Source of the DNA: Diphasiastrum complanatum
Taxonomy: Eukaryota; Streptophyta; Lycopodiopsida; Lycopodiales; Lycopodiaceae
DNA length: 64,000 nt
NCBI GenBank assembly: GCA_029204225.1
Contig: CM055112.1
Location: 24,611,693-24,675,692 of the forward strand
Direction: 5' to 3'
This document shows positions 4,101-46,050 of this stretch, in pieces. Made by a program: the position numbers and the translations under genes. The notes below the pieces were generated by a model. The model saw nothing but the letters and a program-made list of their open reading frames with translations. It was not told the DNA's origin and did no database searches. The stretch's first letter is position 1; every line of letters starts with the position of its first letter.

Positions 4101-5117
4101 AAAGGGAGTATTTCCAGAGGTTCGGGTCTAAAGATATTCATATCTTTGATATCTTTGATGATCAAGAGAAAGGTAAGCAAGTGGAAGCGACTCACTTTGT
4201 TTTACTCACATGTTTTGGAGAATTTTCTTGTGTAGATGATGCTATGCAAGTGGATATTGGTTCTCATGGTTTTCATACTAGAAAAGAAATTAATGGATCT
4301 GGAAAACAAAGTTTGTTCAATGACTTTGATGGTCAAGAGGAAGATCAAGAGGTTGGTCTCAAAGGGCTTCAACAACACAAAAGGAAAGGTGGCAATTTGG
4401 AGCTAGTCAAGACCATCAAAGGAAGGTTATTTGGCAAAAATGTTATGGATCTGTTTTTGCAACTTATTGAAGACTCAAGTAAGGTCAAAGGAGCAGCAAG
4501 GAAGTTTATTTCAAGTTGACTTTACTTGTTCTATCTCATGTTTGAGCTATTTCATATGGATGTGTGCAAATTGTCAAGATATGGACAAACTAGCTAGATT
4601 GTCTTGCAATATCTTATTGTTGGAGTTGTACTAGCATTCTTGGCTGGTTTTGTTGATGGAAATGAATCTAATGGAAGTTCATTATGTCACTCATTCATGG
4701 CCAAGTCATCAAGGTTTGATGATATCTTGTGGCAAGATGGAGATGGAGGCTCATTCATGGAGTTTTATGGTGGAGACATATCAAGAAAGGACAAAGTTGG
4801 AGGAGACAAGCAAGCAAATGGCCATCACTCACAATTATTGTTTGGTTTTTGTAATTTTTCAGAGATTTCAAAGTTTGAAGCATGGAGGAATCATTTCATT
4901 CACATTCTATTTGGTTCTTCATGTTCTAGTTATATCTTGATGTGTAAAATTGATGTAAGAAATAGTGAAACATCCAATTTGGACACTATTCTCTATATCA
5001 ATTATGAAAGATACTTTAGAACCTTAAAAAGGATATCTGTACTTAGGATGAAGTTCATTCTAAAGTTGGATCAAAGTTCTATTGGAAAAACTATGCCAAA
5101 ACTAGTTGAAGAGGGAG

Positions 5118-5761
5118 TGTGAGAGATTTCAACTAGTTTAGTCTGGTTTAGTCATATTTTGGTAAATGTCAATAAGAGGCCAAAATTCATTTTAGACTTA
5201 GAGATAAAGTTACGTTAGTTTAAAATACATTCAATAAACATTTTTTGAAAGTGTGGGAAAGTTGGTAGTCGAGTTTGAGATAGATTTAAATTTGAGCTTT
5301 GGGTACATTGAATCTAGACCCAAAAATAGTAGGGTTTACATTTTGGAGGGAAAGCCAAGTGGCCAAATAGGGTTTGGAAACTCTATCAAAGGATGTAACT
5401 CGTGGAGAGACACATCTTCTCTCTTCTCTCTCTCATTTCATCACTATACATGGTTATTTTTGGGTTCTACTACTCATTGGTGCACTATCTTGGTGTTATC
5501 TTGCAATCTTGTGTGTAGAATGTTCATTTATTGCTATTTTCGGTTCCACGTGTGTGAAATACAGTTGGGTATTGTAATTGTACAAACAACAAACATATTT
5601 TATGTTTTGATTCATGTTTGATCAATATCTGTTAGAGTTTGCATCTCATTTTGTATGTAGATGCTCATTTTTCTACATTGGCAGGATTGTTGGTTTGCTC
5701 CTTATTGTAACCAAAGATCAGGGACATGGATTGGATCTTGAATGCTCTGAAATCCTTCACA
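5118..5761 (+). repeat. 3' LTR of the Copia element 491-5761
   Basis: This is a 644-bp partner of the left LTR, about 94% alike by eye, with the same TGTGAGAG...CTTCACA ends. It is preceded by a GAAGAGGGAG polypurine tract and followed by the target duplication TTACA. Confidence 0.93.
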
Positions 5762-11175: not shown

Positions 11176-14100
11176 ATGGCGCTCATGCGCATAGCTGCTG
11201 CATCTTCAGTGCCAACGCTGTTGAAGAATGTTGAGAAGGTTCCTTGGAGCTACTGCTTCAGGTTTTCTATTTTGTTGTGCTTCTTTGCTGATATGTTTTG
11301 CCGGAGGCTAATTCACTCGAAAAAATTGTTTCTTCCTTGAGATGAGAAACAGGGCAACACAGTAGTAAATGCATCTCTTCTTTTGGGACCCCTTGTTGTG
11401 GACTTTCACATTGTTCAATAGTTTTATAGAATTGACCCATGAATAGAATCATCAATTTGGGTGTTTTGAGTGCGAATATATAGTTGCTTAAACCCATCAC
11501 TTGGCAACTTAAGGATTCTTTAAGAGGTCCAAAAGAGGGGATCCAATATGAATGAATGAAAACAAAGGTCTCTTATAGGATAAAAGCTTTGAAGTAGATT
11601 GTAGGAGTTCAATTTCAAATCCTAAACCCCACCCCAAATTATTTAAGATATCTTGTGCTAGTACAAAACTTACAATGCCATGTGGCCATTTTTCATGCAA
11701 CATGAAATGGCTAATGCTTTGACTGCAATTCTCCTTGGCTGACAACAGCCAAAGGTAAAAATGTCAGTACCTTATAATTTGAAATTTCAATCTTCCTAAC
11801 TTGTAGATATAAGAATCACAAGTTGTAGATTGCAATGCAACTGCCGTACTTTGGGGTGAACAATAATACAAAAAGTATCATATAACATGGTAACGCTACT
11901 AAAAGTATTATAAAAGGAAATGATGCCACTATAAGAATGTATCAGTGATGCATGTAGTGGCCATCATATGTACATGTATGTTCATAATAGAGACCAAGTG
12001 TCAATATTGTGGTAAGCTTGGACATTGTGTCAATCAATTTAGCAAGAGGAAGGATGACTTGGTGGCTAAGAAGCCAAAGGATAAGGATGACATGAAAGAC
12101 ACTATAGACCTCTATGTTGAAAGAGAAGTTATCTCTTCTCTCACAACAAATTGAATGCCTTGATTTTTAACAAACTAGCGTCGATCATCATTGACATATT
12201 TTCACCTATGCTATTTGTATAAGCTAAAGATAAATTCGTCGTTTATGATTTGGTAAGCTTTTTGCAAGGGATGTATCATTTTTTTGCCTACTGGATATTG
12301 TATAAACTATGACATTGTGCTAAGGGAGGACACTTGACAAGTGGTTCTATGTGTTTTGGTTTAGAATTTACAAAAGAATTTCTTGAAAAACTCAAATCCT
12401 ATCAAAGACTGGTTTAAGCATGATGCAATTGTAGTCAATCTTGAAGCTAAATCTTTTTCTTGTCTTGGTATGTTGATGGACAGGCGTGCAAATAGAATCT
12501 ACGAAGATGTCGATGTCCTTGCTGGAGTTGGTGAAGCATCCATGCGCACAAGCATAGAAGGGTTAGTATATATAGTGTTCAAAACCAAAGCGGTGTTTGG
12601 GCTAGTGTTCACAATCGTGCCTTCATTTTATGTGTTTTTTCCTCTTCTTAGAAAATTGTATGTGCCTTTTGATTTGGATGAAAATTATAGCTTTTCTTTC
12701 TTATGCATTTTATGATTGTTTTCCTCTCTTTTATGGTTATTGATGATGCTAGTAAGTGTGATTTTACTTTTTAGAATTGCCTATAGTACATAAAAGAGGA
12801 TTCTTTTCTTAACAGGAGATTGATGCTTATTAGAAGTTAGGTTTCTCAAATGAACCTTTTTTATGGTTGTTTGTGCACAATTAGCCCTTTTACAATGTTC
12901 AAAACTTTGTACTCAATGTTGGTTGAAATACAAGCCAATTTTCTATTCTATACTCATTGAACCTTTTCCAAGATGATGTTTGCTTTCCATTCGACTTCAC
13001 TCAAGATGTTATTCTTGTCAAATTTCAGAGTAAAGGACTGAATTTGATCTACAAATGATCACAAAGAGTGATTGGTAGCTTGGGATCTTGATCTATATCA
13101 AGACTAGCTTCCAAATCTAGCTTCTACTTGACAATCTTTGTGATTCCAAGCAAGAACAATCAAATTATGATGACACATGTGAAGTATAGCTACTGTACGG
13201 CCTAATAACAGAGAAATAGTTTACTTAACTTTTACTAAGCATTCATCCATAAACAAAGTGCTTAAGAGAGTGTAAACATCAAGATTGCTCCACAAAACCA
13301 AGATTTTTCATAATGGCTCAATAATGGATCCATCATGGATCAAGTACAAAATCACAATAATCTCTCTCTAAGCTGCATCCAGCACGTGTGGGACAGCTCA
13401 TTGTACTCATCCATATCCACTTTGGATAAGATCTATCAAGTTTGCCACATCATCCATTGGTGGTTTGTGTTGACCTTCTAGATTCCTACAATCTAGGACC
13501 TCACTCCTATAATTTAGGAGATGTCATATTAGACTCAAATGAAAGCTAATCAAAATGGATCTGAATATTACAAGTGTCATTTCACACGTGTGGACAGGTC
13601 CTCACACTTGTGGATCCACATAGATGTCAAGATACATAAAAAACCATGTGAAAATTGCTTAATTCTAACACTCCTCCTCAACTTTTACATGATATAACTA
13701 TAGTACATCTATCTACAACTCCTAAGGCTGATCTTAACTTGATAAATGAAGTGTTTGGCAAGGCTTTAGTGAGTAGATCAGCAAGGCAATCTGAAGAAGA
13801 CACATGATGTAGCTTGATCTCCTTTGCTTGAATCTTTTCTCTCACAAAATGGTGAGCAATCTCTATGTGCTTGCTCCTTGCATGGAATGTGGGATTGGTT
13901 GCTAATGCTTGGTTTGATTGGTTGTCACAAAATATTATTGGCTGCTCCTCGGCCTCCATGACTTGCAACTCCACCAAAAGCCTCTTCAACCATAGGATCT
14001 CCTTTGTTGTGGATGTTAGTGCCTTGTATTCCGATTCGGTTGAAGATAGAGAAATAGTATCTTGCTTTTTGGAAAGCCAAGACACTATGCCATTGCAAAG

Positions 14101-17100
14101 GAAGGTAACAAAAGCACTTGTGGACCTCCTATCCACCTTATCACCTACAAAATCAGCATCCGAATATGCCCTTAAGGCAAGATTAGATCCATCATATAAA
14201 ATGCCAAAGTTCTTGGTGGCCGAGATGTACCTCAACACCCTTTTTGCATTTTTCCAATGACAAACCAATGGATATTGCATAGATTGGCTTAGTTTACCTG
14301 CACTATAACTTAGATCAGGTCTAGTTATAGTAAAATAGATCAAGGAGCCTACAAGTCTCCTATATAGTGTGATGTCCTCAAAGGATGCTTCATCATCACT
14401 ATTGGAAACTTTTACATTTTGCTCCATAGGAGTTTCTACTCCTTTACAATCTTTCATTTCAAACTTTTCTAAGATAGAAGAAGCATATCTGGATTGACAA
14501 ATAAAACTCAAATCCTTGCCTCTTGAAACTTCTATTCCTAATATGAAATGAAGATTACCAAGATCCACCATCTTAAGCTCCTCAAACAATGCTACTTTCA
14601 CTTCTTGTATACCATCAAGATCATTTCCACTAAGGATAATGTTATCAACATACAAAATGAGAATGATGATCTTACCATCATTGAATCTTAAGTACAAAGG
14701 ATCATAAGCACTTACAACAAACTTAATAGAGTTCAAGAAAGTATTCAACCTAGAGTATCAAGCTCTAGGTGCTTGCTTAAGCCCATAAAGGCTTCTTAGC
14801 AACAAACACACTTTTTCCTCTTGATCTTCTTTGATGAAGCCCTCGGGTTGCCTCATGAAAATTTCCTTGTCCAAATATCCATTGAGAAAAGCATTAGTCA
14901 CATCAAGTTGAAATAGAGGCCAATTGAAAGTAGTTGCAAGAGAAATAATCAACCTTATGGAAACTAGCTTAGCAACAGGAGCAAAAGTTTCATCAAAATC
15001 TACTCCCTTGGTTTGCAAGAACCCTTTTGCCACTAGCCTTACCTTGTGTTTGTTGATGCTCCCATCTTGATTGTACTTCAATCTATAGGTCCATTTGCAC
15101 TCAAGTGGCTTTCTTCCTTGAGGAAGATCCACAAGCTTCCATGTATGATTCTCCATAAGAGCATCATACTCCTTTTGCATGGCATCCCTCCATTCTTGTG
15201 ACTCCATAGCCTCTTCAAAGCAACTTGGCTCATCAAACATAGAAGTTAGAAAAGTGTAAGAGGTAAGTGAATGAAGATCTTCCCTTTGTTCACCTTTGTC
15301 AACATAGGTGAGCCTTGAGGGCTCGGCCTTCCTTCTTGTAGATCTCCTTGGAGTCCTTGGATCTTGAGATGGATCTTCAAGATCTTGATCATATGTAGGC
15401 TCCTCCTCAAACCTTACAAGATCCTTGACATAAGATGGATTAGAAGCTTTCTCATTCAACTTGTAGTAGTTACCTTCATCAAAAGTAACATCTACTCACT
15501 AAAATCTTCTTAGTGATTGGATTATAGACTCTATATCCTTTGCTATTTTCAGCATAACCAACAAAGATCCCTTTAATAGAAGTAGGATCATCCTTTTTTC
15601 TTGTATCTAATGCTTGAAAAACATAGCAAGTAGATCCGAAAATTCTTAGATCTTTAAGATTCGGCTTCTTACAAAATAGAGCCTCATAAGATGTTATGCC
15701 TCCAATGGGCTTACATGGCAATCTATTACACAAATAAGTTGCACAAATAATAGCCTCTCCCCAAAAGGACTTAGGTAGAGATGCATCTAACCTTAAAGCC
15801 TTAGCACACTCACAAAGTGTTCTATTCATCCTCTCGGCTATACCATTTTGTTGAGGACTATAAGTACATGGAAGTTCTCTCTTAATGCCATTGGATTTAC
15901 AAAACTCTATCATCTTGGTGGAGATATACTCTCCACCATTATCACTCCTCAATACTTTAATTCTAGCATCAAGTTGATTTTCAACTGGAGTTTTGAACTT
16001 AACAAAAGCTTCAAACACTTTACTTTTGGAATCCAAAGGTTCAATCCAAGTGTATCTAGAGTAATCATCAATAAAAGATACATACATAGATGCACCTCCA
16101 TTAGATTCTAGAGAAAAAGAGTGCACATCACTATGAATAAGATCTAATGCTTTTGTAGATCTAGTGGAAGAGTTATCAAAAGGTAGCTTGTGTGCCTTTG
16201 AGAGGCTACAAGCTTCACAACTTTTTCCACACTTTGAGAGTGTCTTTGGAAGGCCGAGAGCAAGATCCTCGATGCATAGCATCTCCATAGATTTGAAGTT
16301 GGGGTGGCCCAACCTCTTATGCCAAAGCTCCACTTGATTGAGCTCCTCCTTCACCATGTTCACACTTCCAAGAAAAACATTAGCATCTAGCTTAAAAAGA
16401 CTTCCTTGCTTGAATCTCTTTACAATGCAAGTATTATTCATCATTATGGAGCAAACACCTTGCTTAAAATGGACATCTAAGCCATCATCCATCAATTGTC
16501 CTACAGTTAACAAATTCTTAGTGAGTGTAGGAACATAGAGTACATTATCAAGATCTACTCTTTTAGAGGATCCAAGACTTAAGGGAATAGTTCCCACTCC
16601 ATCTATTCTACATTCTTGATCACTTGCTGTTAGAATAGACTTTTTACAACCTACCAAAGGTACAAGAGTTGAGAAAAAATCCTTTTGGAATGTCATGTGG
16701 GAACTAGCCCCACTATCAATCCACCATGTGTCATTGGAGTAGCTCTTTGATGTTGATGTAAAAGCCATCAAGGATGAATCCACTTCATCCTCATCTTTTT
16801 CAAGAGTGAGGTTGCCTTGTTTGCTCTCTCCTTGTGCATTCTTCTTCTTGAAACACTCGGATGCAAAGTGCCCCTTCTTTCCACAAAAGAAGCACTTGAG
16901 TTTGGCTTTTTTCTTCTTTCCACCTTTGGAGCTTGATGGTTGATCATCATTCTTGGTCTCCTTGTGTTGGATCTTCTTCTTTGACTTTGCCTTTCCCTTG
17001 CTTGAGAAGTTGGCCTTCTCATCACCATCATGCAACTTCAAGGATCCAATCCTTTGCTTGACATGAAGGATCCTACTCTCCTCGGCCACAAGCACACTAT

Positions 17101-20100
17101 GGAGCTTGTCAATGGAAGGTAGTGCATCTTGAATAGCAAAGCTTTGTACAAGATTGGAGAACTCATCTCCAAGACCATTCAAAATGATTTGAACAAGTTC
17201 ATCATCATGAATACCCTCACTAATGATGGAAACATACTCTTGAGCACTCTCATCACTCCCTCTAATGCTTTGAAGAACTTTGTTTCTAATCATAAGCACT
17301 CCAGAGGTATTTTTGGATTCATAAATCCCTTTAAGGTAGTTCCATGCCTCCTTGGCCGAGATACATTAGAAATTCATTACTAACATTCATTTTCAAGCAA
17401 TGTAATGCTAGTCTAGCTCTCTTTTTGTACCTCACTTGATCTTGCCCTCCTTGAGGTTCTTCTTTCTCTCCTATGACAAGATCAAACATATCTTGGAGCA
17501 CAAGTAGTGACTCCATTCTTACTTTCCAAGTTGAATAATTATTGGAATTTAGCCTTTCACTAGCCTCAAGAAGATAGGCTCCAATTGAACCCATTCTATC
17601 TAGTAACAAGTACAACAAATGTACTATTCAAAGGCTCTCCCTTCTTCCTTTCTCAAAATTTAGCTAAAATGCTACTCTCTTGAATCTCACTAGACCCAAG
17701 AAGCAAGATTTATAATGATCTTGAACTCAAGAAGATTTGGGAAAATGTATTCTACACAATCTATTTGACTCTTGGAAGTGCCAATGCCTTCCAATGGTGT
17801 TTAGAATGGTTTTAGTTTCACTCTTGAACTAAAAAACATAAGCCTCAAACTCTCTCTCAAGGATTTGTAGGTTTAATAAGCTTCTAACACCATTTACTCA
17901 TCAAATCTATAAAGGAAACAATGGTTTTTCATAAGCACATCACTAGTTTCAGTCTACACAACTTGTTTGAAGCTCAAATATTGAAAAAACACAAAGTTTT
18001 GGTGAAAGTACAACTCCAGCAGCCACTCACATGTGTGAGAAGTACATCTGAACTTTCCACACTAATCTGAACCTCAACATTACAAGTAAACTATTAGAAA
18101 AGGTCGCCCTCCAAAATGAATCTAGCACCAATGCTTTCACCAAAATGAAGATTTTTGGATCATCAACTAAGCTCTTTGACTTGGCTCTGATACCATGTCA
18201 AATTTCAGAGTAAAGGACTGAATTTGATCTACAAATGATCACAAAGAGTGATTGGTAGCTTGGGATCTTGATCTATATCAAGACTAGCTTCCAAATCTAG
18301 CTTCTACTTGACATTCTTTGTGATTCCAAGCAAGAACAATCAAATTATGATAACCCACGGCTTCACATGTGTGAAGTACAGCTACTATACGGCCTAATAA
18401 TAGAGAAATAGTTTACTTAACTTTTACTAAGCATTCATCCATAAACAAAGTGCTTAAGAGAGTGTGAACATCAAGATTGCTCCACAAAACCAAGATTTCT
18501 CATAATGGCTCAATAATGGATCCATCATGGATCAAGTACAAAATCACAATAATCTCTCTCTAAGCTGCATCCAACACGTGTGGGACAGCTCATTGTACTC
18601 ATCCATATCCACTTTGGATAAGATCTATCAAGTTTGCCACATCATCCATTGGTGGTTTGTGTTGACCTTCTAGATTCTTACAATCTAGGACCTAACTCCT
18701 ATAATTTAGGAGATGTCATATTAGACTCAAATGAAAGCTAATCAAAATGGATTTGAATATTACAAGTGTCATTTCACACGTGTGGACAGGTCCTCACACG
18801 TGTGGATCCACATAGATGTCAAGATACATAAAAAACCATGTGAAAATTGCTTAATTCTAACAATTCTTTGTTCGTCATGAAAGTCAACACTCAATTGTTC
18901 TTAAACATGCTAACTCTGCTTTCTTGACACACAAAGAGACACTTCTTGATCTTGTAATATTGCTCTTAAAAGTATGATCAAATGTTAAGGAGAATCTAGA
19001 GATATTGATGTTGCTCTCTATATGTCCTCTTTTCATCTTTTTTCTCAATATAGCACAATACATTAAGTGCAAAATTTCAACTTTCTCCTGAGGTGAATTT
19101 CTTGTATGACTTTAAGGCATTTTCTTATTACAAGGAACTAGAAAGCATGCATTGCCCTCATTACAAGGATGTGAAAGAATATGTCCAAATTGGATACATT
19201 GAAAAAATTCTCTTCCTAGGTGAACTACATGAAACAATCTTTTTTTCAAGAGCATAGTATTGGGAAAAGGCATTTCCTAGCATAGTCCATTTTGCCAAGC
19301 ATGGGAAACAACCCTGAGAATTGGTTATGTCTCAATGGGGAAATGGAAAAGTTAAAAAAAACCTGAAAAAATAGTCAAATTCAAGCTGTTGGGAGTAGTG
19401 GATGTTTACTGTACATGAAAATGGCTTGGAAATAGCTAGAAGGAGGTCTCAAGCAAGTTGGAATCCTCCTAGGGGCTCCCACCACCCCTCCTCTAAACTC
19501 GAGTTCGAAGCAAAAGGTTTTTTGCTCAAAACTCTATCCCTCCGAAAAATTACAACGTTGGATGGCAAGGTGTGTTATTGATCATTACTTTTGCTATGGG
19601 CTCTGTTTTCAACAAGATTGGATGCAACTGTTTGTGAAGCAGCGATTAAACCTTTTGACAGTGTTTTTGGTAAGAGTATTGCCTAGAAAATCGTGCACTT
19701 TGATGGATTTTTTAAGTGTTTTTCACCTTCGATGTTTATAAGGTTTACTTCACAATGTGCAATGATTCTTGCAAATTGCTTTTGGTGATAAATTGTATCT
19801 CGTTTATTGTTAAAGGCAATCTAAATTTGTACTGTAACCCTTCAATCCAGCTCTTTCTTAATGCTTGTTTGCTCTATTTTGGCATTACCAGGACTTCTAG
19901 TAATCCCACTCAAAGTGGAGATGTTGAGATTATTGCCAAAGGAGTCCCACAAGGATATCGGTGGAAACATGTACATCTTAATGAAGTTGCTCGTGGTGGG
20001 AGTAGAAGATGGGTGTGCGGTTATTGCAAGGAGGAAAAGGCCAAAGGTGTAGGTTAAAAGCTCACTTCTTAGCTTTGGGTGGACAACAAATCAGAAGAGG

Positions 20101-23100
20101 ATGAATGGGAAATTGTTATTGGCAGGAAAGCAATACTCAATAAGTTTGTGCTTGAAGAGAAAATTAGAGCGGTGAAAACCCAACTATCACTATATAGAAG
20201 AAAGGAGCACACATTTCTAGTAAATGGGGTGTAGTGGTGGGAGGACCATGGTGCTGATACATTGAAGCTGAAAAACTTGGCACTTAAGATCTTATCACAA
20301 CACTGCAGCTCCTCTCCATGTGAGAGGCTTTGGAGCAAGTTTGCTCATGTAGTTACCATCTATGGCGTGGGTGCATGTAGAAGTTATTGGGGAAGTTGGA
20401 AAGATAGAAAGGGCTTGTGGAGATGTGATGAGGATGAGTATGGTGATAATCTCTATCAAGGCGTCCCTCAACAAATTGTCCCATTTAATAGGCATAGGAA
20501 GATTTGGAGTGGACAAATGTGAGAAGGTTTTTGTGGAATGTGAAGAAATCTTCAAAGGTCAAGTTTTCTAGCATGCCGAGCAATGAGGATGAGGTGGGAC
20601 TTAACGAGGAAAAACCAGTAGGTGCATCTATGGCTGCCTCTATAGGATGGGTACCTAAGAGATGTCGACAAGCTTTAGAGGGCTAAGGTGGTGATCTTAC
20701 TACTACATGGGCTATACCAAAGATATTTCCAAATGCAATCCCATCTAATGTGATTAGAGATGTTGAGAACTGGAAGTGAGGTGGCTCCTTCAATGAAGGC
20801 CCCAACCTGCGAGGCTATCAGAGTGCACAAATTATGGGAGAACAATTGCTTCATAAGGCCACAACTATCAAGGATAAGTGGATGAAGTATGGATGCTTTT
20901 GTCGCTACTAGTATCTATGGATCTATCTTCTTACGTAACGTGGGGTGGTGCAAGTTGTGAAGGACAATGTGCACAATTTACTTGTGTGTTGGAGCTATAT
21001 TGGAGTATTTGTACTTTTGGAGCTATATTGGAGTAATTGTACTTGAGAGTATGATGGTCAATAAATACATAAAATTTGGCACTAGCTGGAGTTAGCTCGA
21101 CGCACCTAGCCTAGTGGCCTCCCATTTCAAGCTGATTGTAGAAATACTTGAGAGTATGATGGTCAATACATAAATGAAATTTGGCACTAGCAAGAGTTAG
21201 CTTTGGCACCTCAGATTGTCTGTACCACAATGTCATTGGCATTGGTCTTTAAACAAAATGGCTTTTGGTGACCACAGGTGCTCCTCTAATAACCAAAACG
21301 TTATCTCCTCGTAATTGGTCTGATATTGGAATAGCTAATCTACTGTAATTCTTTAATGAATTTGAGATAAAAAACCTAGACGTATATTTGTTGGCCAGGG
21401 CCAACTCAATATCACAACCACCTTGGTTGTATCTACAACAACTCCCTCTACCGCCACTCTGTGATTGAGGTAAACCACTTGAGTCATACACAACTCAGTT
21501 TTCTTATCATTGTCATAAAGAACATAGTTTTGCAATGCCCTAAATATTTTTCCTAGATTCTCTTCATGGTAAGGAATCTTTAATCACTATCTAACATATC
21601 TGATGTAAATTGCAACATATTTTTCAAAACTTGAAAGATGAGAATCATTTTCAATGTCATCTGCATTTGAAAAATGTAAGTACAATTACTCGAAAATTTG
21701 TTGCTTTATTTCCAAAGTAGAAATGAGAGAGCCATCTGGCAACTTTTCTTAATTACAAAAGTAACAGTATCGAAAAACAAACAAAGAAACTCACAAAAGC
21801 TAAATAAATAACTCTATTAAATGATGATCATGAGGGTATTCGTCATCTCTCCAAGGGGTTTTGGGCACTTTATCATAGATCTCCTTTCTTGAAAGAAAAT
21901 TGTGTTTTTAAACTAGCATTGACCAAGCTAGGCACGAATGATGAAGTTCATAAGGTTTTACATGTCCAAAAAACAAGGCCCCTTATGATAACAAAGTTTC
22001 TAATGTGATTAATGTCCTCAAATGTCCTATTTTAATACTTATACATATGCCAATATGCCAAATTCGTAGTTGACATCGTTTCATATACGAAGGAGCTAGA
22101 AGCAAAGTCAAGGATGTAGAAGGAATATGTGCCACAAAATGAGGATAACAAAGATGTCATGGTGAAAGGGTATTAGGAAGTGGTGCCATATACAAGCTCA
22201 AAAGCTGATATCCAAATGGTGATGAGTCTCTAGCTGCATATTGTCAATAGTCCTCATAAGTAGCAATGCTTTGTAAAAGAAACAACTTGATGACAAAAGA
22301 AATACTCATATTGAATTTAGAGGTAGCTCCCTCTCTTCCAAGCTAAAAAGTTGAACGGGAAATCAAATAAGGTTAGGGCCCTCCTGCAACAAATCAAAAT
22401 CTAATTGGAAAAGTCAATAAAATGGATGCCCTTGATTTCTTGTAGGTGATTCAAGTCTACTGATTAGAAAAAGACTACGTTGTATGCTTTGTAAAAGTAA
22501 TTGTTTGGTGAAATAAAATAACCTTCGTATTGGAATTAAAAGTAGCTCCTCTTGAAGGCTAAATTGTTGAACTGGGATTGCAATGGGGTTCGGGCACCAG
22601 TGTTAATCAATCGATATCTAGATTGATTAACATTGGTGCCCCAATTCCTTGAAGTTAATCGGAGTCTCCTTAGTAGAAAAAGACTCCTATGTGTCACAGA
22701 AAGTGCTCTAGTACCCAAGGTATGAACAAATTCACCATATGCCATGCACAAGACAACAATTGCACAAGCAACCTCAATATCTTAATAATTCGTCAACAAA
22801 GTGATTGCAAACAAACGAAAATAGTTTGCCTTAGGATTCCCCTACAAAGGAACTTAGCTTATCAAATTTCCTTGGCAAAGAAAGTCACAAAACATAGATA
22901 AGAAAGCTATTAAGTGAGGATCCTTTTGAGGATATTATGGCCTTTAGAGGATTGGAAAGCCTTTTTCTCGGGAAGGTGTTTGGATCCTTGACCCAAAAAC
23001 TAAATCGCCAAGTTGGGAACAAATGCAATTAGTGTGGTTCAAAGGGTCCAGATGTAATGAATCATAATAGGTTGCTTCAATGTGATTAACATCCTTATCG

Positions 23101-26100
23101 CCAACAAGGATCTAGTGTGCATGCTGATGTGATCTTGCTCACTCCCAAGTTGTTTGTTTGAAATAGTAGGAGAAAGAATAACCATAAGACAAAGTAACAT
23201 TTCACAAACAATCTTGACAACTTATGATTATCAGGACATAGAGCCAAGTAAAATGTAGTTATTTTGTCTTTGTGATTAATGGATACATTTGCAAACAACA
23301 TTTTATTAGAAAAATATGTTGTTAAAGAATACCTTTTGGAGATAAATTCCTTGTAGCATTTTAACAAGCCTATTTGCTAGTCGTTCTTATACTCACTTGA
23401 TATATTTTGACCAATTTTTATTTTCTTCAACGACTTAATGTTAACTTTCGCTAGCCAAGGAGTCTCATTGTGTGCATAAGTGTCTAGTTTCAAAAAATTT
23501 CAGAAGAATGGTCATTATTGGTTCATGTTTGTGCTTATATGTTATATGTAGCCTATATATAGATTCTAGTACTTTAAAGTATGTGTAAATTGGCCTTATT
23601 TCTGAATTTTTGATGATGATGGTTTTGAGTAGGTACTCTGAGACAGGATTTTTAACAAATGATGGAATCAATCATGAGGGTTCAATCATTTGCCTTAGCA
23701 AGTTTACATTATTGTGGACTCCTAAAACAGTTCCAGAAATCACCCCTAACAGGTCAATTTTGATCTCTATTTATGTTAGCTTTTTATTTGGGTAAGAGCT
23801 ATGTGGGTCTATCATGTAGTCTATATCGTTGAGCACATGAATCGGTCATTACACAAATAATTCTAACAAGATCAATAGACTATATGTAGTCAACTAATTC
23901 CAAGGGTGAAAGATGTACATGTTGCTTGATTTTTGTGGGAAAAATTTAAGAAAAATCAACTTTATCTTATTCAACTATAGAAGCTATAGTATCAAATCAG
24001 TTTTATATGATATTTGTTGGGGTGGCTGTTGCTGCAATTCTATACTCAGCTTCGGTAGAGGATAATGCCACTGTAGGCTGCTTCTTACAAAGCCAAGTTA
24101 TCGCAGCTGAACCAAGAAAAAATATCCAAAAATTGACCTCCGATTTGTGGGATCACTTGCCCAATAATAGCCGAACAATTTGAACATGTCATTCTCAGCA
24201 TATTCAAATCCATAATTAATTGTATGCTTTAGATAATGAAGAATCCTCTTGGCTGCCTTGAGGTGGACCTGTTTTGGATTCGCCATATGTTGGCTAACAA
24301 ACTTGACACGATATGCAATATCGGGCCTGGTTATAGTAGCATATATGAGGCTACCAACTAGTTTCCTATACAAGGTCTTGTCAAATTATTTTTATTCATT
24401 TTTATCTAATGTGGACAGCCTAATCTCTGCTGGAGTTGCAGCAGGTTTGCAGTCCATAAGATTGAATTTCTCAAGCATGTTGTATATGTATTTGCTTTGT
24501 GTGAGGAAGAGCGAGTGTGGGAGCCTCCACACCTCTAAACCAAGATAGTAATGGACTTGTCCCAAGTCCTTCATCTCAAATTCTTGAGATAAAGTGTTTT
24601 TAACTTCGACGATTTGCTTAGGATTACTTCCTGTGATTATCATATCATCAACATAGAGTGTTAATAAGAGGATTTTACCTTCTTTATTCAAAATATAAAG
24701 GTTGGGATCACCCTTATTCTTTGTGAAACCACGGGAAAGATATATCTCTTCATCGACATAGCCAGAGAAAGGCAGATTTTACATCCATTTGATGTGTCTC
24801 CCATCCAAAGTGAGTTGCTAAAGCAAGGACAAACCTAATGGTGGGCATTTTGGCAACAGGAGCAAGCGTTTTGTTGAAATCTATGCCCTCCTTTTGCGCA
24901 GATCCCTTTCCACTAGCCTCATGTTGTTCTTGTCAATTGCGCCTTTGACATCATACTTGACTTTGTAAACCACTTTGTACCTATTGGTTTTCAATTTAGC
25001 TTTGGTTCAACTAATACCCATGTTTTGTTCCTCATAATTGTGAAGCTTCTTCATCGAGGCCCTTCAACGTTTAGTACCTTTGCCATTAAGGCAAAATTCA
25101 TAGAACTTTTGAGTCTCTCTCTTAGGACTCTTTGAGCCCCTTGTTGGCTAGATTCGGCTTTATCGACTCTCTCTCCTCCTCCAATTGTCTTCAAGTACCA
25201 TTGAGGGAGTTTCTTGGGTTGAGGAGGAGCACTAGGCTGAGGATTAACCACTATGGGTTGCTGGAAATCACCAATATGAGGGCTGTTTTCATGTCGGATC
25301 TGCTCCGCATCTTGAGCAGCACCTTCTTCCTCTTCTCTTAGATCAAGGGGAAGAAACTCCAGGTCGTTGTCCACTTGGCTGTCTGCAGGTTTTAGATCTG
25401 CACCAACCATCTTATTTTCATTGAAATAGACATCCCGAGGTGATCGATTTTGAAGATACGCTGCTGTTTGGACAGCTTCAGCCCAAAAGCCTCTTGATAA
25501 ACCACTTGCCTTGAGCATAGTTCGAGCCGCTTCCACAAGAGTCTTACGCTTGGCAACACCATTTTGTTCTGGCATGTAGGACGTGGTTAATTGGCATTTA
25601 ATGCCTTTGTTTTGCAGTAGTCATTAAACTCGAAAACTCTCCTCCCCTATCACTTCTTAAGCATTTGATTTTGCTATTAGAATGTAGTTCAACCATAGCT
25701 TTGAATTCAAGAAAGTAAGAGAATGCTTGAGGCCTATGCTTCAAGAAGTATACCCAAGTCTTTCTTGAATAATCGTCGATGCAGGTTAAGAAGTATGTTG
25801 AGCCACCAATACTTTGGGTTTGTGCTGGTCCTCAAATATCGCTATGAATGAGCTCCAAGAGTGATTTGGCTTGCGTTGAACCATCCAACGGAAACTTTTG
25901 TTGATGGTGCTTGCCATGGACACAAGGTTCACATACCTCTTGGCCAATTTCAATTGGAGGTAAGCCAAGTATAAGATTTTGATCATGAAGGTACTTGGTG
26001 CTTTTATAATGTAAGTGACCGTATCTTCTATTCCAAAGTAAACTTTGAATAACAACTTTTGAAGACAAAGCATGTTGATCAAGTATTGTATTAAGCTTGT

Positions 26101-29100
26101 ACAATTTTCCTTCATTTCTAAAGCCTGGCAACGATTTTCTTATCTTGCTTTAAATCTCTAATGAAGCACCTATCATTGTAGAATTCCACAAGCATGTCTT
26201 GATCGGTTAAAGCACCAACTGACAAAAGATTTCGAGCAAAGTTAGGAATAAGCAAAGCATTCTTGATCACACTTGAAAATCCAGAATTGAATTGAATTGG
26301 AATGTCACCTTTGCCAACTATATCCTGTGTGCTATTACCTCCTAGCACAACTTGACCATTTATACCTTTGGAAAAGGATGAAAACCAATCCTTTCTAGGA
26401 GTCATGTGTGAAGACGCTCCGCTGTCCATTACCCATTCCTCGCCGCTTTTTGAGTTTTGATTCACCTTGAATAGGTACTCATCACTAAGACCACCACCAC
26501 CAATGAAGTTGGTTGATTCATCTTCGGCTTGCTTGGTTGATTGAGAGGTTGATTTCCATTTGACTTGTGCTTCCGATGCAGCTTGTTTGATACGGCAATT
26601 CGATGCTGAATGTCCGCTCTTTTCACAATAGAAACAAGGGCCTTGTACCTTGTTTGTTGAAGTAACTTGCTTTTGCTTCGCCTTAGATGGATCGTCCTTG
26701 AACCAACAATCTGCTTCTTTGTGGCTTTTCCTACCACAAATAGAACACTTAGAGTGAGGGGCACGATATGTGATAGCAATGCCTTTCCATTGTTACAAGC
26801 ATTAGAACCTTGTTTCTTCTTATTCTTTGGATTCTTCTTGTTGTTATATGCAACAAGAGCTTGAGATTGTGCATAAACCTTTGCTGTCCCATAAGTTTGG
26901 GAAACTAATTCTTCTTGAAGAAGAATTCCAGCCACATTATCGTAGTTTGGTGGTTTCTCTCTAACATTTAATGTGGTGACAAGATGCTGGAGTTGTGGAG
27001 GAAGCCCATTGAGGGTGACACTAACAATGTCTAGGTCATCTACATCCTTCAGTTGATCTACCACATCTTTGATTCTCATCAAGTATGGTGTCATAGCTTC
27101 TCCCTCACTCATTTTCAAGATATGAAACTTTTGCTTGAGGGAGAGGATCCTAGTGGTGGAAGATGTCTCAAACATTTTTTGGAATTTCTCCCAAGCCTCC
27201 CTAGAGTGATTTGACATTAGTGGCGTGTGGAATAAGGCTATCCTTAATAGACATATTGATTATGGCTAGTGCTTTATTAACTCTTTTATCAAAAACCTTT
27301 TTCCTCTTGAAAGTAGCATCCTCCTCGTCGGATGTATCATTTTCAGGAGGAGGAGATTCTTCTTCTCCTATTGTCAAATTCCATAGATCTAACATAACCA
27401 AATATCTTCTAGGGTTACAGGTTTTACACACACACATTGACATGTATAGGAATTCGGACTTTCAATTTCGAAGTTCAAGATTTGATGTGCACTCAGGAGT
27501 CAATGCTGCAAACAGTCTGAAGCTCTAATTATTATTTTGATGTCACCCTAAACCCGAAAACCATGTAATTTTTCTGCACCATATTTCAGCCCCCAGAAAC
27601 CCCCAAGGAAACAACCCCTCCCTCCCCCAAAAGAAAAAAAAAATGGTATATTTAACTATGTCCTAGATAAAAACACAAACAGTTTAGTTTGTTCCTGAAT
27701 GTTGTGCAACTTTGGCTCAGGTTATTTATTATTTGAACCCTATTTTAGATGACTAACTCACAGTTAAGGAATATTATGACTTTGTTATGGAAACTCTTGC
27801 CTTAGGCAAAAATCCTTGGCTAGTTTGTATGGAAATCAGATCGATAACCTTCTCATGAAGTCCTGCCAAAATTCATAAGGATGACTGTCATGAAAAGAAT
27901 TACCAAACAAGTTGCTTGTTGCCATGTACTCTTGGAGGTAATAGCTGTAATTGATCAAAGTCTTAACGCCCAAATTATTTTGTATTAAATGAGATTAGCC
28001 ATGGCGTTTGACCTCGTGGTTTGATTTGTGTTTGCAGCTTGACATTGTTTCAACTTTTGCGACCAGCACCAGGTATACACTTCCCTTGCTTGTGAGCATG
28101 TTGCAATTTTGGTATTCCTTACACATTCCTATAATTAGGTCTATTTGTTCTGTCTTCTTTTCCACGTAAGGTTTTTGAATGAGAGGAGGCAGGCTGCTTT
28201 TTCTGGAATGTTTTAGCATACTTAATAGCAAATTTCCCAAGCTTCGAGCTGGATCAATGGTTGTGAATGATGATGGGTGGCACCTGACCCATTCTTTCTT
28301 TTAGTATCAAGAAAATGGTCAGAGATACTTCACAACTGTGCGGTAAACACAAAATTTGAAAGTGCACTTTTTTGCTCCCCTCATACTTTTCATAGAGTTT
28401 GATTATGAACACGTACATGTACATGCAAACGCATAGGCACCTTGGCAGACCAGGTTTGTCTCTGTGGTGGCCATTTGGTCCAGTTAATTGGGAATGCGCG
28501 CATTGTGTGACTATATTGATAAGACGTATCAAACATGGTTCTTCATGCTATCATAACATTCTCCCATGCTAAAAATTGCTGAAAGGTGCATCAAAGTCCA
28601 TAGTAAGATTTTTGTTTGTTGCAGCTTTCAGTCTTATCTTTCTGAAGCTTCATAGGGAAGTGATTGTAATGAGAAGGCTGACTTTAGCTCTTACCAGAAA
28701 TTTTAATTCTTGGCTGTGGGAGAACAATACAACCTGTGAGCAAAGATGTCAAGGACTTTCTACGATCAAATGGCATAAAACTTGAGTTTATTGACACGGT
28801 ATTGTTTATGCAATTATTAAACTCAAAGTTTGAAGCAGTCGTGCAAAATCGAATCATGCTATCAAATAAGTGTCTGCATAACTGGCCTGTGGTGCTCTCC
28901 ATTATCACATATAGTGGGAAAAAATTTGGTGTTTGCAACTTTCAAATGTAGACACGTAGTTTGAAGAGAGGTGTAAGAGACCAGATCGAGAACATGCATA
29001 TTGATTGGCAAATCTGGTGAAATGTTCATCTCTTGTAGTTCACATGATACGTGACCTCAGGGACTAGCACTTTACTTGTAATCTTTTTCTTCTGCTCACT

Positions 29101-29260
29101 TTTGCGATGCCCCAAATGCTTTACTTTTCATTTTCACTTTTTGCTATGTCTGAGTCCTGTTAGTGTTAATCCACAGAGAAATGCTGCCTCAACATTCAAT
29201 TTTCTGAATGAAGAAGGCCGACTTGTTGCTGCAGCTTTGCTTCCACAAGGTGCTCAATAG
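11176..29260 (+). CDS. NDUFAF3/Mth938-family protein, mitochondrial complex I assembly factor, six exons
   Basis: Exons: 11176-11261, 12484-12561, 23633-23752, 28038-28072, 28698-28798 and 29177-29260 (TAG). All introns are GT-AG and all phases agree, giving 504 nt or 167 aa. The N-terminus ([18 protein letters not shown]) is basic and non-acidic, like a mitochondrial presequence. The DUF498/NDUFAF3 fold begins near residue 55: [53 protein letters not shown] (conserved GCGR at 112-115), [18 protein letters not shown] and the signature end [20 protein letters not shown]. Plant homologues share this size and motif order. In animals NDUFAF3 helps assemble respiratory complex I; the same role here is inference. 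Start choice: the first ATG, in a good plant context (AAGATGGCG). Introns 2 (11,071 bp) and 3 (4,285 bp) are inflated by elements, mostly antisense to the gene. No coding break is seen. Confidence 0.93.
11980..12150 (+). mobile_element. LTR-retroelement gag zinc-knuckle scrap in intron 1
   Basis: A short frame resembles a retroelement CCHC knuckle region (CQYCGKLGH) followed by a Lys/Asp-rich tail. It lies in intron 1 (11262-12483) of the NDUFAF3-like gene. It is only a fragment, broken at both ends, and has no LTRs. Confidence 0.5.
13016..13670 (-). repeat. 3' LTR of the Copia element 13016-18862
   Basis: This 655-bp LTR starts TGTCAAAT and ends TTCTAACA in plus-strand reading. It is followed by CTCCTCCTCAAC, the complement of the polypurine tract. 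Confidence 0.94.
18196..18862 (-). repeat. 5' LTR of the Copia element 13016-18862
   Basis: This 667-bp LTR is nearly identical to the one at 13016-13670. The primer-binding complement GCTCTGATACCA lies directly to its left. The repeat ATTCT follows at 18863. Confidence 0.94.
19880..20700 (+). mobile_element. hAT transposase relic with internal loss
   Basis: On the plus strand a BED-type zinc-finger block ([15 protein letters not shown], then WVCGYC) is followed about 250 bp later by a hAT C-terminal dimerisation block ([20 protein letters not shown], then LWSKFAHV). In whole hAT genes these blocks are more than 1 kb apart, so most of the catalytic middle is missing and the frame is interrupted. 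No terminal inverted repeats were identified. It lies in the sense direction within intron 2 of the NDUFAF3-like gene. Confidence 0.6.
21038..21212 (+). repeat. Direct duplication, about 65-bp units
   Basis: The segment 21040-21106 (ACTTGAGAGTATGATGGTCA start) recurs at 21146-21212 with a few changes. A shorter word, TTGGAGCTATATTGGAGT, is repeated just upstream (20990-21035). It looks like a local slippage or small segmental duplication within intron 2. Confidence 0.75.
21245..21535 (-). mobile_element. Ty3/gypsy reverse-transcriptase/RNase H scrap
   Basis: The minus-strand frame has [19 protein letters not shown] and SWPWPTNI, the recognisable hinge between the RT thumb and RNase H in Ty3/gypsy pol. 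It is short, broken and without LTRs, and so old. Confidence 0.65.
22592..22641. repeat. Strong 21-bp stem-loop in intron 2
   Basis: GGGCACCAGTGTTAATCAAT and one more base pair with the complementary arm ending TTGGTGCCC (one mismatch in 21), around an 8-base loop GATATCTA. It may be the core of a small foldback element or a structured intron RNA; I see no terminal duplication that decides it. Confidence 0.75.
23753..28037 (+). other. Intron 3 of the NDUFAF3-like gene (4.3 kb)
   Basis: The donor GTCAATTT and the acceptor GTGTTTGCAG are seen. The body is mostly the truncated Copia copy at 24.0-27.5 kb. The last 500 bases (27540-28037) show no feature apart from a C-rich then A-rich patch near 27.6 kb. 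Confidence 0.85.
24020..27530 (-). mobile_element. Ty1/Copia fossil, truncated, no LTRs found
   Basis: The minus strand shows Copia parts in the normal order: gag from about 27.4 kb, two zinc knuckles near 26.7 and 26.6 kb, protease with [15 protein letters not shown] near 26.4 kb, GAG-pre-integrase and integrase 26.1-25.4 kb, reverse transcriptase 25.0-24.4 kb and RNase H to about 24.05 kb. It is broken in many places and both LTRs are absent, so it is older than the 13-19 kb element and of another Copia lineage by sequence. It lies antisense in intron 3 of the NDUFAF3-like gene. Confidence 0.88.
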
Positions 29261-34672: not shown

Positions 34673-37600
34673 CTACCTTGTCCTGATGGTATCATTCGTA
34701 AAGATAATATTTGGGTTACGAATGTGGGAATTTAAAGCTGCAATTTCTGGCCATTTTGCCCCACTTCCATGCACCTGAGCCGAAATGCTCCAAAGGGACT
34801 CTCCCTGCCTGACCTTTGTTTTAGCTGGCATTTGCTTTGATTTAAGGAGAGGATGCTTAGAGGTTGTTATTTTACTCATGCCATTAGCAATAAGCCACCG
34901 TGAACCTGATTGATGCTGCTTTTCATTCCCCCATATCTTCTTCTTACAATTCCTGTTCTCCAGTCTTGTGTTCAAACCTGACACGTGCACTCCTGTGATC
35001 TTAAACTTTGGGATTTGTGCTTCATATGTCTTAATAGCTTCCTCGTCTTCACATTTTCCCTTGACAGAGACTCTTTTCCACATCTTTTGACGGTATGGTA
35101 CAATTACAGGCTCTGCCTGAACCAAGGCCATCATTGGTGAACCTACTGGCTCGTAGTTTCGAAGTGGATTCCTGAGCTGGACTAGCATTGCCAAAGTAAG
35201 AGCATTATTCATGAATCCAGTTTTCCTTGATGATAGATTATCAGTAGCTTTCGTTATTTCTTGTTCACTATTTCTCTTTTCTCTTGGAACTATCTCATTA
35301 TGAGCTGCATGATGTACAGCCAAAATTGCTGATGTTTTCTCATTAGTCTTAGATTCATCATAAACCCCAGCATCAAGCCTCATCCATTCTTCCAGTGGGA
35401 TGGACATGGACATTAGTCCACCATTTCTGTGTGGATTCTCTTGCCCAGATTCTGTCCCCTCCAATAGATGCGTAGCTGCAACACCCTCTATTATATCAAT
35501 ATGACTGCCTTTTTTTGCTCTTATGCTTTCGGAGGCAGGCACGTCTTTCCATGAAAAAGCATCAATGTTGTACGGGGCATCTTCCTCAGCCATGCCACAT
35601 TGTATTTTCAATCCTTCGATGGCCAATGCTTCAATTTTTTCCACGGCAACAGGTGCAAGCTTTTCAAGAGACGTGTATTCTTCAATTGGATCTGTGGAGC
35701 TCTCTGTTCTTTCTTTGCTGTTCCCTTCAAAGCCTCCCCTAATGTCTTTTGCTTTGCTGGAGTAGATGTCAATGGTTACAGAATCTGCTGCAAAATCTTG
35801 GCAACAAGTTGTCTGTAAATCAAGCCCGCCTTTCTCTGTACTATCCAAAGCCAGATATCTGCTGTTTCCATAGAAACAGTTCATTAAACAACAACTGTTC
35901 CAGAGATGTCAAATACCATCTACGGGAAGAAAGCCGGCCAAGTTACATGAAAGCTTTAACTAGTACTAATATCTTCTGTAATATGTTGTTCAAAACACGA
36001 GAACTTGTTTTGCGTGTAAAATCCACGAAGCTTAAAGACATTATACAGCAATCACCCAGGGAAATAAATACCTTGGCTTAGAGGATGAACAAGCTAGAAA
36101 TTCATTTTTGTATCTAGATGTATGGAAAGATGGAAACTTTTGTTTTGTTCCTAGCCTAGAACAAAGAAAAAGACCTTATTTCACCAAGTCAGAAGACAAA
36201 ATAACTTTATCTCTAAGACTATAATCAACTCCAAAATTTGTTCCTGCTGATTCAAGTTTGCCATAAATTCAGTAAAACGAATTACATAGCACACAGAATC
36301 CCAGCCCACCCTCCCAACTTTTGAACAGAACAAACTGATCATACTTGGATCATTAAGGTAATTCTACAGGGAAGGCAGTACAACCTGTGGCTAGTGCTTT
36401 CCAAGGCAGCCCTCCCCTCAAGTGCAATTTGTTGCTCAGATTTGCCTGTGATATCATCTAGAGGCATAGCTTTTATGGCCTGAGCAACCATTTGTTCCAT
36501 CCCAGCAGCTGCCAACTCTTGTAAGATGTCCACTGCCTTATAGCCCATCTCAGCTGGCACAACTACTGGCCTTGACAAATGCATCACCAGCCTAACATCA
36601 TATTGACTTCTTTGGAAATGGATTGAACTCATTGATTTTAATGAGCCTCCATCTCTGGTAGGAATAACTGCATCAAAACCTTCTGTAAGGGGAGGTGCTG
36701 GTGGCACGGCAGTCAGTGTACCTTCTAAATTTAGGCCATGCTTATTTGTTTGTAGGGAAGTGCTTTGGAATGCCTTCTCATCTAGCCCCCATTCATGCAT
36801 CAGTGCTTCAGTTTCTGCATCTTCAAGCATTTTAGCACGTGCCTTGCTACGCATCTTCTGAGAGGCTTTCCGAAGCTCTGTCTCCGCTGCATCCATTATT
36901 GCTGCAAGCTCAAATTCCTCCTCACTGCCCCAGGTTGCTGCATATTCATCGTCACCGTTTGTCTGTTTTTCAGGCAGCAGTCTGTTGTTCACTGCAATAG
37001 CACTTGGAATCTTTTGCTGACAGTCATCCAGCTGTAAATCTGGAACTTGGGGAGAAGCAAAGTCAAGGTCTAAGTCTCCTTCCGGCAGAGACTCCTTTAA
37101 TTGCTTCGAAAACAATGATGCTCTTGGAGAGTTTTGCTCACTGTTAGACAAGTGCTGACCAAATTGTTTCTCTTCGTCCAGCATGTGCAAAAACTCCCCA
37201 GTCACCACGTCTACCTCATGGTCTGAATGTGACATGACACATTCCCCTCCTGTTCTCGTCCGAGCTGCAGAGAAAGCCTCTGAGTTCTTGTCGTCAATTA
37301 TATCCCTGCTCTTCTTCTCATCCAATTCTTGAAAAGTGCCAATACCTCTTTTTAGTGAATCAGCATTGCAAGAATTCTCAGTATCGTTCTTTCTCAGCAG
37401 ATTTTCATCTGAAATGCTTTGCATTATGTCCAACCCCCTCTCCGTTGCTCGGTCCCCTCTCACCATATTTTTAACCCTATAATCACTCTCCTCTATGCTT
37501 GGAAAATCCATTGGCAGTAGTTTCTCATCAGCTGGTGGGCTCACATTCAGCTGCTTCTGTGCGTCAGATACTTCCTCTTCATCTTCAAGGTTAGCCGGAA

Positions 37601-38906
37601 GACGCATGGGTTCATTAACACTCAACGTGCTAACCTCCACTCCATGCTCCACAACCTCAAATTCCACATGCTCAGGAGCTATATCTACTTCTCTGATCTG
37701 CTGCTGGCTTGATTTGCTGGCTTGCACTGCAAAATTGCCCAACTGCAAGGGATCTACTTGAGGAATTTTCTTAATCTTCGAATTAAACTTCGAAAAATTT
37801 GCAAACTTTTTATCACATTGACAGAGAGATGTCTGCCCTTTGCTGATTATGAAAGGATCGGATCTTTCCTCTCCCTCAACAACACTCAAATTCTCCACGG
37901 AGGGAGATGAGAGACGTGTGTTGGCTGGGTGCGCAACAGGCCTGGTCTGAGGAGAATTGAGCAGGTTGTTGAGGGATGTCGTTCCTCTCCCAATAGAAAA
38001 TTTGCCCGATTCATCATTACCACCACCACTGGTGTGTCTGGATTCCCTGTCCAGAATTTCATAACTGAATTTCACCATCAAAGTGCCTCCCTTTGCCTTC
38101 CCAGAAAGATAGAAGTTTGTGGTCTGATTCAGATTCTTCTCAAAATAGCCCTTTCCATCAGAGCTCTCAGGCAGCATTCGGGTGAGCTCTAATTGATGTT
38201 TCCCAAGCTCCAATTTATCTACATCCACAGCAACAGTAGATAAAATGAAGCATTCGGACATGTATTTGATTCGGTGTGAAGCTTTTTTCGATCCATAGAC
38301 GGTGCAGCTGATACGCAAAGTCTCATAAAATTCTGCACGGCCGTGAGAAACTCTGCAGGGTACAGTTTGAGCGGAGTTATCCTGGTGGCGAAAGTGGACA
38401 GTAAGCCTCAGTCCATTCATGGATGCCGGCAAATTGTTGATGGACTGAACTTGGATCAGAAAAATGCAGTGAAATCTCTGCTGCCCAATGTGCGCCAGCG
38501 CTCGCAGTGGCTTCCAGTTCCACAGGCTCTTGTTTTGGCTGAAGCTTGCATTTTCCTGCAGCCATTCAGAGAAATTGCTAACCTTATGCAATTGCTTCTC
38601 GTATCCCTCTTTCTGCTGTTGTTTCTGAGCTCCATCCGAACCTGCAGTAGAGATGGAGTGACGGAACCCAACAGACCTGAAAACAGAGGAAACTGTGTGC
38701 TCTCTGTGCTGGTATTCACTGGCCCGCCTCTCTCTGGCAGCTCTAGTCTCACTGCCTGAGCGGAAGGACGAAGCTGAATCATTCCAAGGAGGAGCAACAG
38801 GACGCCCTGTTTTATAGAGCGCATGGCTGAGAGCTTCGACATTCTCTGGCAAATGGCTTCCTTCCTCTACCTGCTTACTGAGTCCACCAGAGCCTGAGCT
38901 AACCAT
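34673..38906 (-). CDS. PMI1-like: PLASTID MOVEMENT IMPAIRED1 (PMI1)-like protein, two exons
   Basis: Exon 1 is 38906-36385 and exon 2 is 35861-34673. The 523-bp GT-AG intron preserves frame, giving 1236 aa. Domains: basic Ser-rich N-terminus; NT-C2 (EEIG1/EHBP1) domain at about 130-287 (FHCIFLIQVQSINNLP, LMVKFSYEIL); a long acidic, probably disordered middle (about 290-690); then conserved PMI1 blocks ALMHEWGLDEKAFQ, PVVVPAEMG, AMPLDDITGK and, in exon 2, YTSLEKLAPVAVEKIEALAI; finally a LysM-like tail, residues 1187-1236 (GESLWSISAQVHGSG, NPNIIFTNDTIR). In Arabidopsis PMI1 is needed for chloroplast and nuclear light-driven movement through short actin filaments; the same role here is inferred. 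The Arabidopsis protein is about 840 aa, so this one is long, mainly in the middle. Start: first ATG of the open frame, next to MVSSGSGG. The frame is clean. Confidence 0.95.
35858..35866 (-). promoter_or_regulatory. Tandem NAGNAG splice acceptor of the PMI1-like intron
   Basis: On the minus strand the intron ends AACAGCAG, giving two acceptors three bases apart (exon 2 starting at 35861 or 35858). Both keep the frame and differ by one residue at the exon junction, so two isoforms of 1236 and 1235 aa are possible. Confidence 0.7.
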
Positions 38907-46042: not shown

Positions 46043-46050
46043 AATCAAAC
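46043..46050 (+). repeat. Right target-site duplication of the hAT element
   Basis: AATCAAAC is identical to 40936-40943. Confidence 0.9.

What the first reader, a model, noticed from the sequence alone, without database searches (positions are those of the whole stretch)
11176..29260. A 167-aa NDUFAF3-like gene stretched over 18 kb by intronic elements
Only 504 of about 18,085 bases are coding. Intron 2 alone is 11.1 kb and hosts a nearly whole Copia element, yet all six exons, phases and splice sites are intact. It is easy to miss by ORF-based gene finding because the exons are 35-120 bp. It is a good natural case of how long, antisense-element-filled introns are still spliced.
Basis: partly seen in the sequence, partly recalled or inferred. 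Interest (0 to 1): 0.75.

Follow-up and report, generated by a model that had tools for sequence, protein, structure and literature searches.

The report
Ordinary plant gene with long introns
A small plant gene, probably for a protein that helps build the respiratory chain in mitochondria, is spread over 18,000 bases because old and fairly recent jumping genes sit in its introns; some other genes sampled in the same genome are as long, so this looks ordinary.

Summary
Six exons with GT-AG borders and fitting phases give 504 nt and 167 aa over 18,085 bases, 2.8% coding. The product matches Pfam DUF498 (PF04430, NDUFAF3's family) over all 109 profile positions, E 1.6e-31. In the 1.74-Gb assembly only this locus matches. 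Intron 2 (11,071 b) carries a 5,847-base antisense Copia with two LTRs and a 5-bp target-site duplication, pol interrupted. Intron 3 holds an older antisense Copia relic. Intron 2 also holds a hAT relic in sense orientation, so the filling is not all antisense.

The claimed interest is not borne out. Two of three other conserved families located in this genome span 15-33 kb, one with a single intron of about 20.7 kb; NDUFA12 does not in the part seen. Long TE-filled introns are published for a fern and gymnosperms, though Isoetes sinensis averages 426 b.

No RNA data: splicing is inferred. Junctions 3|4, 4|5, 5|6 rest on homology, 2|3 thinly, 1|2 on phase and splice sites only.

The parts
11176..11261 (+). 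exon 1 (86 bp), start codon, presequence-like N terminus (by eye)
   Evidence: GT donor, in-frame TAA 36 bases upstream of the ATG; no homology support
11262..12483 (+). intron 1 (1,222 bp)
12484..12561 (+). exon 2 (78 bp)
   Evidence: only its last codons fall in the DUF498 match, which begins at residue 53
12562..23632 (+). intron 2 (11,071 bp)
13016..18862 (-). Copia LTR retrotransposon in intron 2, antisense to the gene, 5,847 bp, pol interrupted
   Evidence: LTR pair; gag, Pol beta-barrel, integrase, RT domains in Copia order; ATTCT duplication and initiator-Met-type PBS; interruptions
13016..13670 (-). LTR (3' LTR of the antisense element)
18196..18862 (-). LTR (5' LTR of the antisense element)
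19880..20519 (+). hAT transposase relic in sense orientation; limits approximate
   Evidence: Dimer_Tnp_hAT E 1.6e-5 in the open stretch 20235-20519; a BED-finger-like stretch upstream is by eye only, Pfam did not find it
23633..23752 (+). exon 3 (120 bp)
23753..28037 (+). intron 3 (4,285 bp)
24006..27461 (-). degenerate antisense Copia relic; open stretches with Pfam support run from 24395 to 27259, the wider limits are by eye; no LTR pair found
   Evidence: RVT_2, rve (just under its cut-off), gag_pre-integrs, Pol_BBD, Retrotran_gag_2; stretches 25054-25620 and 24101-24385 gave no family; no repeat pair in the self-comparison
28038..28072 (+). exon 4 (35 bp)
   Evidence: skipping it breaks the frame; not found on its own
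28073..28697 (+). intron 4 (625 bp)
28698..28798 (+). exon 5 (101 bp)
28799..29176 (+). intron 5 (378 bp)
29177..29260 (+). exon 6 (84 bp with stop)

Best explanation
A single-copy, intact nuclear gene of a plant for a mitochondrial DUF498 protein, most likely the orthologue of the complex I assembly factor NDUFAF3. It is transcribed as a pre-mRNA of at least 18 kb and its five ordinary GT-AG introns are removed by the major spliceosome. Introns 2 and 3 grew by insertion of transposable elements, including two Copia elements in antisense orientation. Shown: exon sequence, phases, splice dinucleotides, domain, one locus in the assembly, element anatomy. Inferred: transcription, splicing, mitochondrial import and the assembly role. 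Also inferred: antisense orientation spares the gene the elements' own promoter and poly(A) signals, and read-through of heterochromatic elements of the IBM2/EDM2 kind known in Arabidopsis may help polymerase to cross them.
For: Six exons with GT-AG borders and continuous frame; full-length DUF498 match, 1.6e-31; five distinct solved-structure sequences of DUF498-type proteins matched up to E 1, the best (3cpk) without gaps over residues 105-165 and 2fvt with one gap over residues 51-162; in the genome only this locus matches, with five of six exons found on their own and exons 5 and 6 by profile; skipping exon 4 or 5 breaks the frame and reading on into any of the five introns meets a stop; LTR pair, target-site duplication and PBS of the intronic Copia; long genes in two of three other families in this genome and in print for other plants (passages).
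Against: No transcript evidence. Exon 1 and junction 1|2 have no homology support, and junction 2|3 has only the few residues before residue 55. Skipping exon 2 or exon 3 keeps the frame, so shorter isoforms cannot be excluded. No eukaryotic NDUFAF3 was compared; NCBIfam gives no match. No AATAAA lies within 540 bases after the stop codon, while intron 2 has six on the sense strand, two of them inside the Copia. NDUFA12 shows no long intron in the part seen, and Isoetes sinensis, another large plant genome, has short introns on average (passage).
Confidence: 0.88

Rival explanations
1. The locus is a recently silenced gene: its exons are still intact, but the intronic elements stop productive transcription, and the function is lost or carried by an unassembled copy.
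For: The Copia in intron 2 is fairly young (14 substitutions in 655 aligned LTR sites, K2P 0.022), so decay of the exons might not show yet.
Against: No other copy of the gene found in the assembly; no stop or frameshift in 167 codons; the protein fits its family well. The intron-3 Copia is far more decayed, so the gene bore such an element long before the young insertion.
Confidence: 0.05
2. Exons 3-6 are right but the 5' end differs: exon 1, or exons 1 and 2, are not the true start, for example because another first exon lies upstream or within intron 1.
For: The domain match begins only at residue 53; reading frame, splice signals and start context are the only support for exon 1.
Against: Exon 1 starts with ATG in a good context (A at -3, G at +4), an in-frame stop lies 36 bases upstream, and exon 1 joins exon 2 in the right phase.
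Confidence: 0.1

Closest known systems
NDUFAF3 / DUF498 (Pfam PF04430)
   Same: Whole 109-position domain in a 167-aa protein with a short N-terminal extension.
   Different: Nothing found in the protein itself; only the gene is widely spread. The subgroup was not tested.
TE-expanded long introns of ferns and gymnosperms (Ceratopteris richardii, PMC9477723, passages seen; gymnosperm review PMC9364684, passages seen)
   Same: Introns above 10 kb rich in transposable elements in ordinary genes; Ceratopteris has 17,745 introns over 10 kb and a mean intron of 5,555 bp.
   Different: The genome here is 1.74 Gb, smaller than the 7.46 Gb assembled for Ceratopteris.
Ty1-copia LTR retrotransposon
   Same: LTRs, target-site duplication, tRNA-type PBS, integrase before reverse transcriptase; its LTR has 38 scored matches elsewhere in the genome, the list being capped.
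   Different: pol interrupted.
Arabidopsis genes with heterochromatic elements and the IBM2/EDM2 pathway (PMC10241880, passages seen)
   Same: A gene must be transcribed through an element-bearing stretch.
   Different: No chromatin or RNA data here; the pathway was not looked for in this genome.

Membership tests
DUF498/NDUFAF3 (PF04430) | Match over the curated cut-off | tested here: met
   108.9 bits against a cut-off of 33, profile 1-109 of 109
DUF498/NDUFAF3 (PF04430) | NDUFAF3 subgroup rather than another DUF498 protein such as AAMDC (name recalled) | not tested
   No eukaryotic reference sequence compared. The five PDB matches are called uncharacterized or conserved hypothetical (four) and outer membrane protein (one); that all are bacterial is partly recalled
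DUF498/NDUFAF3 (PF04430) | Mitochondrial targeting | not testable with these tools
   N terminus looks like a presequence by eye only
DUF498/NDUFAF3 (PF04430) | Role in complex I assembly | not testable with these tools
   Reported for a Chlamydomonas mutant (Massoz et al. 2017 as cited in PMC5810273, passage seen); not tested here
Ty1-copia (intron 2) | LTR pair with TG..CA ends and target-site duplication | tested here: met
Ty1-copia (intron 2) | Integrase upstream of reverse transcriptase | tested here: met
   rve in open stretch 15482-17365, RVT_2 in 14761-15495 and 13681-14757, minus strand
Ty1-copia (intron 2) | Uninterrupted gag-pol | tested here: not met
   frame ends at 15479-15481 and again at 14758-14760, minus strand; gag match starts only at profile position 59
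Major-spliceosome introns | GT-AG ends and phases that keep the frame | tested here: met
   5 of 5 introns
Major-spliceosome introns | Removal shown in RNA | not testable with these tools
   no RNA data

The most novel reading that the evidence does not exclude
Removal of the 11-kb intron 2 depends on a dedicated device, such as stepwise (recursive) splicing or chromatin marks over the Copia that help to define the exons, so that the level of the complex I assembly factor varies with silencing of the element.
Probability: 0.04. Interest if true: 0.45.

Novelty: new member of a known kind. Interest (0 to 1): 0.12.

Why it matters
Mostly as an annotation point: ORF-based methods would miss a single-copy gene, probably for complex I assembly, whose exons are 35-120 bp over 18 kb. 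The Copia insertion with its target-site duplication would give a before-and-after pair for intron length if a copy without it were found in a relative, but other loci in such genomes should offer the same.

Tried and rejected
Retrocopy test: I hoped that a processed copy elsewhere would act as a natural cDNA and prove the junctions. The protein search of the whole genome gave 5 matches up to E 10, all at this locus (exons 1, 2, 3, 5, 6), so there is none to use. The matching DNA search with the joined CDS did not complete.

Second copy or paralogue: none by profile (2 matches, both at this locus) or by protein.

Naming the organism: the window lies in a 1.74-Gb assembly of 5,176 contigs. That it is a plant is inferred from the Copia elements and a PMI1/PMIR1-2 domain gene next door. 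The taxonomy look-up only shows where that species stands. The name is not used.

Baseline of intron size: four Pfam families were chosen as yardsticks. Three were answered: PGI, adenylosuccinate synthase, NDUFA12. MTHFR did not complete. They are a handful chosen by hand, not a random sample. Gaps between matches are upper limits for introns except where profile positions are contiguous, because short exons go unseen, as exon 4 does here.

RNA families: no match in the window at gathering score. NCBIfam: no match to the protein. tRNA: none. Recursive splice sites were not scanned for.

Full report
What is there. A script that cut the window at the stated places gives six exons of 86, 78, 120, 35, 101 and 84 bp, 504 nt in all, translating to 167 aa and a stop; all five introns start with GT and end with AG, with lengths 1,222, 11,071, 4,285, 625 and 378 bp; 2.8% of 18,085 bases is coding. 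The ATG has A at -3 and G at +4, and an in-frame TAA lies 36 bases upstream.

Is it a gene. The joined product matches Pfam DUF498 (PF04430) with 108.9 bits against a cut-off of 33, E 1.6e-31, residues 53-162 to profile positions 1-109 of 109. The match runs across junctions 3|4, 4|5 and 5|6 and just reaches across 2|3, which falls in codon 55. Junction 1|2 is not covered: it rests on phase and splice sites. Against solved structures the protein finds 5 distinct sequences up to E 1, four called uncharacterized or conserved hypothetical and one called outer membrane protein, best E 2.5e-7. NCBIfam gives no match. Skipping exon 4 or 5 breaks the frame, skipping exon 2 or 3 does not, and reading on into any of the five introns meets a stop.

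How many copies. A search of the window's own assembly (1,744,706,496 bases, 5,176 contigs) with PF04430 up to E 10 gave 2 matches, exons 5 and 6 of this locus, each under the cut-off as a single exon. A search with the 167-aa product up to E 10 gave 5 matches, exons 1, 2, 3, 5 and 6 of this locus; the 35-bp exon 4 was not found on its own. So the gene is single-copy as far as the searches reach, and no processed copy was seen.

What fills the introns. Intron 2 holds a Copia element from 13016 to 18862 (5,847 bp, 53% of the intron), on the minus strand and so antisense to the gene. Its LTRs (13016-13670, 18196-18862) are 96.25% identical by BLAST; in a pairwise alignment there are 14 substitutions in 655 sites plus 12 gap columns, K2P 0.022. 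Both ends are flanked by ATTCT, and the base run after the 5' LTR, read on the element's strand, begins TGGTATCAGAGC, an initiator-Met-type primer-binding site (the label is recalled). Pfam finds gag, zinc knuckle, Pol beta-barrel, gag-pre-integrase, integrase and SH3-like domains in one open stretch and reverse transcriptase in the next two, in the Copia order. The frame ends at 15479-15481 and again at 14758-14760 on the minus strand. At assumed rates of 1.3e-8, 6.5e-9 and 2.2e-9 substitutions per site per year (rates recalled) the insertion would be about 0.8, 1.7 or 5 million years old; the rate for this plant is unknown. The search with one LTR listed 40 matches of 93-100% identity, two of them this element's own LTRs, with 40 of 2,681 first-look candidates scored, so it belongs to a larger family. 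Without the element and one copy of the duplication intron 2 would still be 5,219 bp long. Further on, intron 2 has a hAT relic in sense orientation (Dimer_Tnp_hAT, E 1.6e-5). In intron 3, open stretches between 24395 and 27259 on the minus strand match gag, Pol beta-barrel, gag-pre-integrase, integrase (just under its cut-off) and reverse transcriptase in several frames; two of the stretches searched gave no family. That is 67% of the intron, or 81% with the limits 24006-27461 drawn by eye. No LTR pair was found for it. With the wider limits the two Copia stretches make up 9,303 of 18,085 bases.

Is it unusual. Three other conserved families were located in the same genome; a fourth did not complete. 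Glucose-6-phosphate isomerase, 11 matches: on C23 they span 32.9 kb with gaps of 13.5 and 12.3 kb between neighbouring matches, on C17 15.5 kb. Adenylosuccinate synthase, 9 matches: on C21 they span 25.9 kb, with 20.7 kb between matches whose profile positions are contiguous (1-30 and 29-260), hence probably one intron; much the same spacing is seen on C36, and the first exon again on C2550. NDUFA12: 2 matches within 0.5 kb, part of the domain. So two of three families show genes about as long as or longer than this one, and one does not in the part seen. In print, Ceratopteris has a mean intron of 5,555 bp, 17,745 introns over 10 kb and no correlation of gene length with expression (PMC9477723, passages). 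A review of gymnosperms reports introns over 20 kb, a share of Ty1-copia in long introns of Ginkgo and pine, and seemingly minimal influence of long introns on transcript accuracy (PMC9364684, passages). Against a general rule, Isoetes sinensis (2.13 Gb) has a mean intron of 426 bp (PMC10541799, passage), and Arabidopsis and rice average 152 and 387 bp (as given in PMC9477723). The case is an example of a known pattern; how common it is in this genome is known only from these few loci.

How it probably works. The gene is most likely the plant NDUFAF3; a Chlamydomonas complex I mutant is disrupted in NDUFAF3 (Massoz et al. 2017 as cited in PMC5810273, passage). Transcription through the Copia-bearing introns needs that the elements' poly(A) and promoter signals do not interfere. 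Antisense orientation would help; still, AATAAA occurs 6 times on the sense strand of intron 2, two of these inside the Copia (14500, 16070), and not in the other four introns nor in the 540 bases after the stop. In Arabidopsis, mutants of IBM2 and EDM2 show premature polyadenylation in element regions, and the authors suggest that these factors suppress proximal poly(A) sites rather than enhance splicing (PMC10241880, passages). Whether this plant uses that route was not tested. The role of these facts at this locus is inference.

Verdict. Observation confirmed; gene and family supported; splicing untested; significance low.

Noticed in passing
491-5761: A second Copia-type element on the plus strand: LTRs 94% identical, K2P 0.062, TGGTATCAGAGC after the 5' LTR, and TTACA on both sides if the LTRs end one base before the BLAST limits.
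   Followed up: partly
34673-38924: PMI1-like gene on the minus strand (NT-C2 and PMI1/PMIR1-2 C-terminal domain) with a LysM domain match in its last open stretch; whether LysM is usual in this family was not checked.
   Followed up: partly
41462-46043: GC-rich stretch (51-52%, against 44% just before and 37% just after) with a hAT dimerisation domain on the minus strand at 42239-42820, E 9.3e-7: probably a hAT-type transposon.
   Followed up: partly
58022-58405: Open stretch with a weak bacterial hexapeptide repeat match (E 4.2e-4, below the cut-off); reads like the start of an LpxA-like acyltransferase gene, by eye.
   Followed up: partly
G000 C21 and C36: Adenylosuccinate synthase is found twice with identical scores and similar spacing, on C21 and C36, and its first exon a third time on C2550: perhaps alternative haplotypes left in the assembly.
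   Followed up: no
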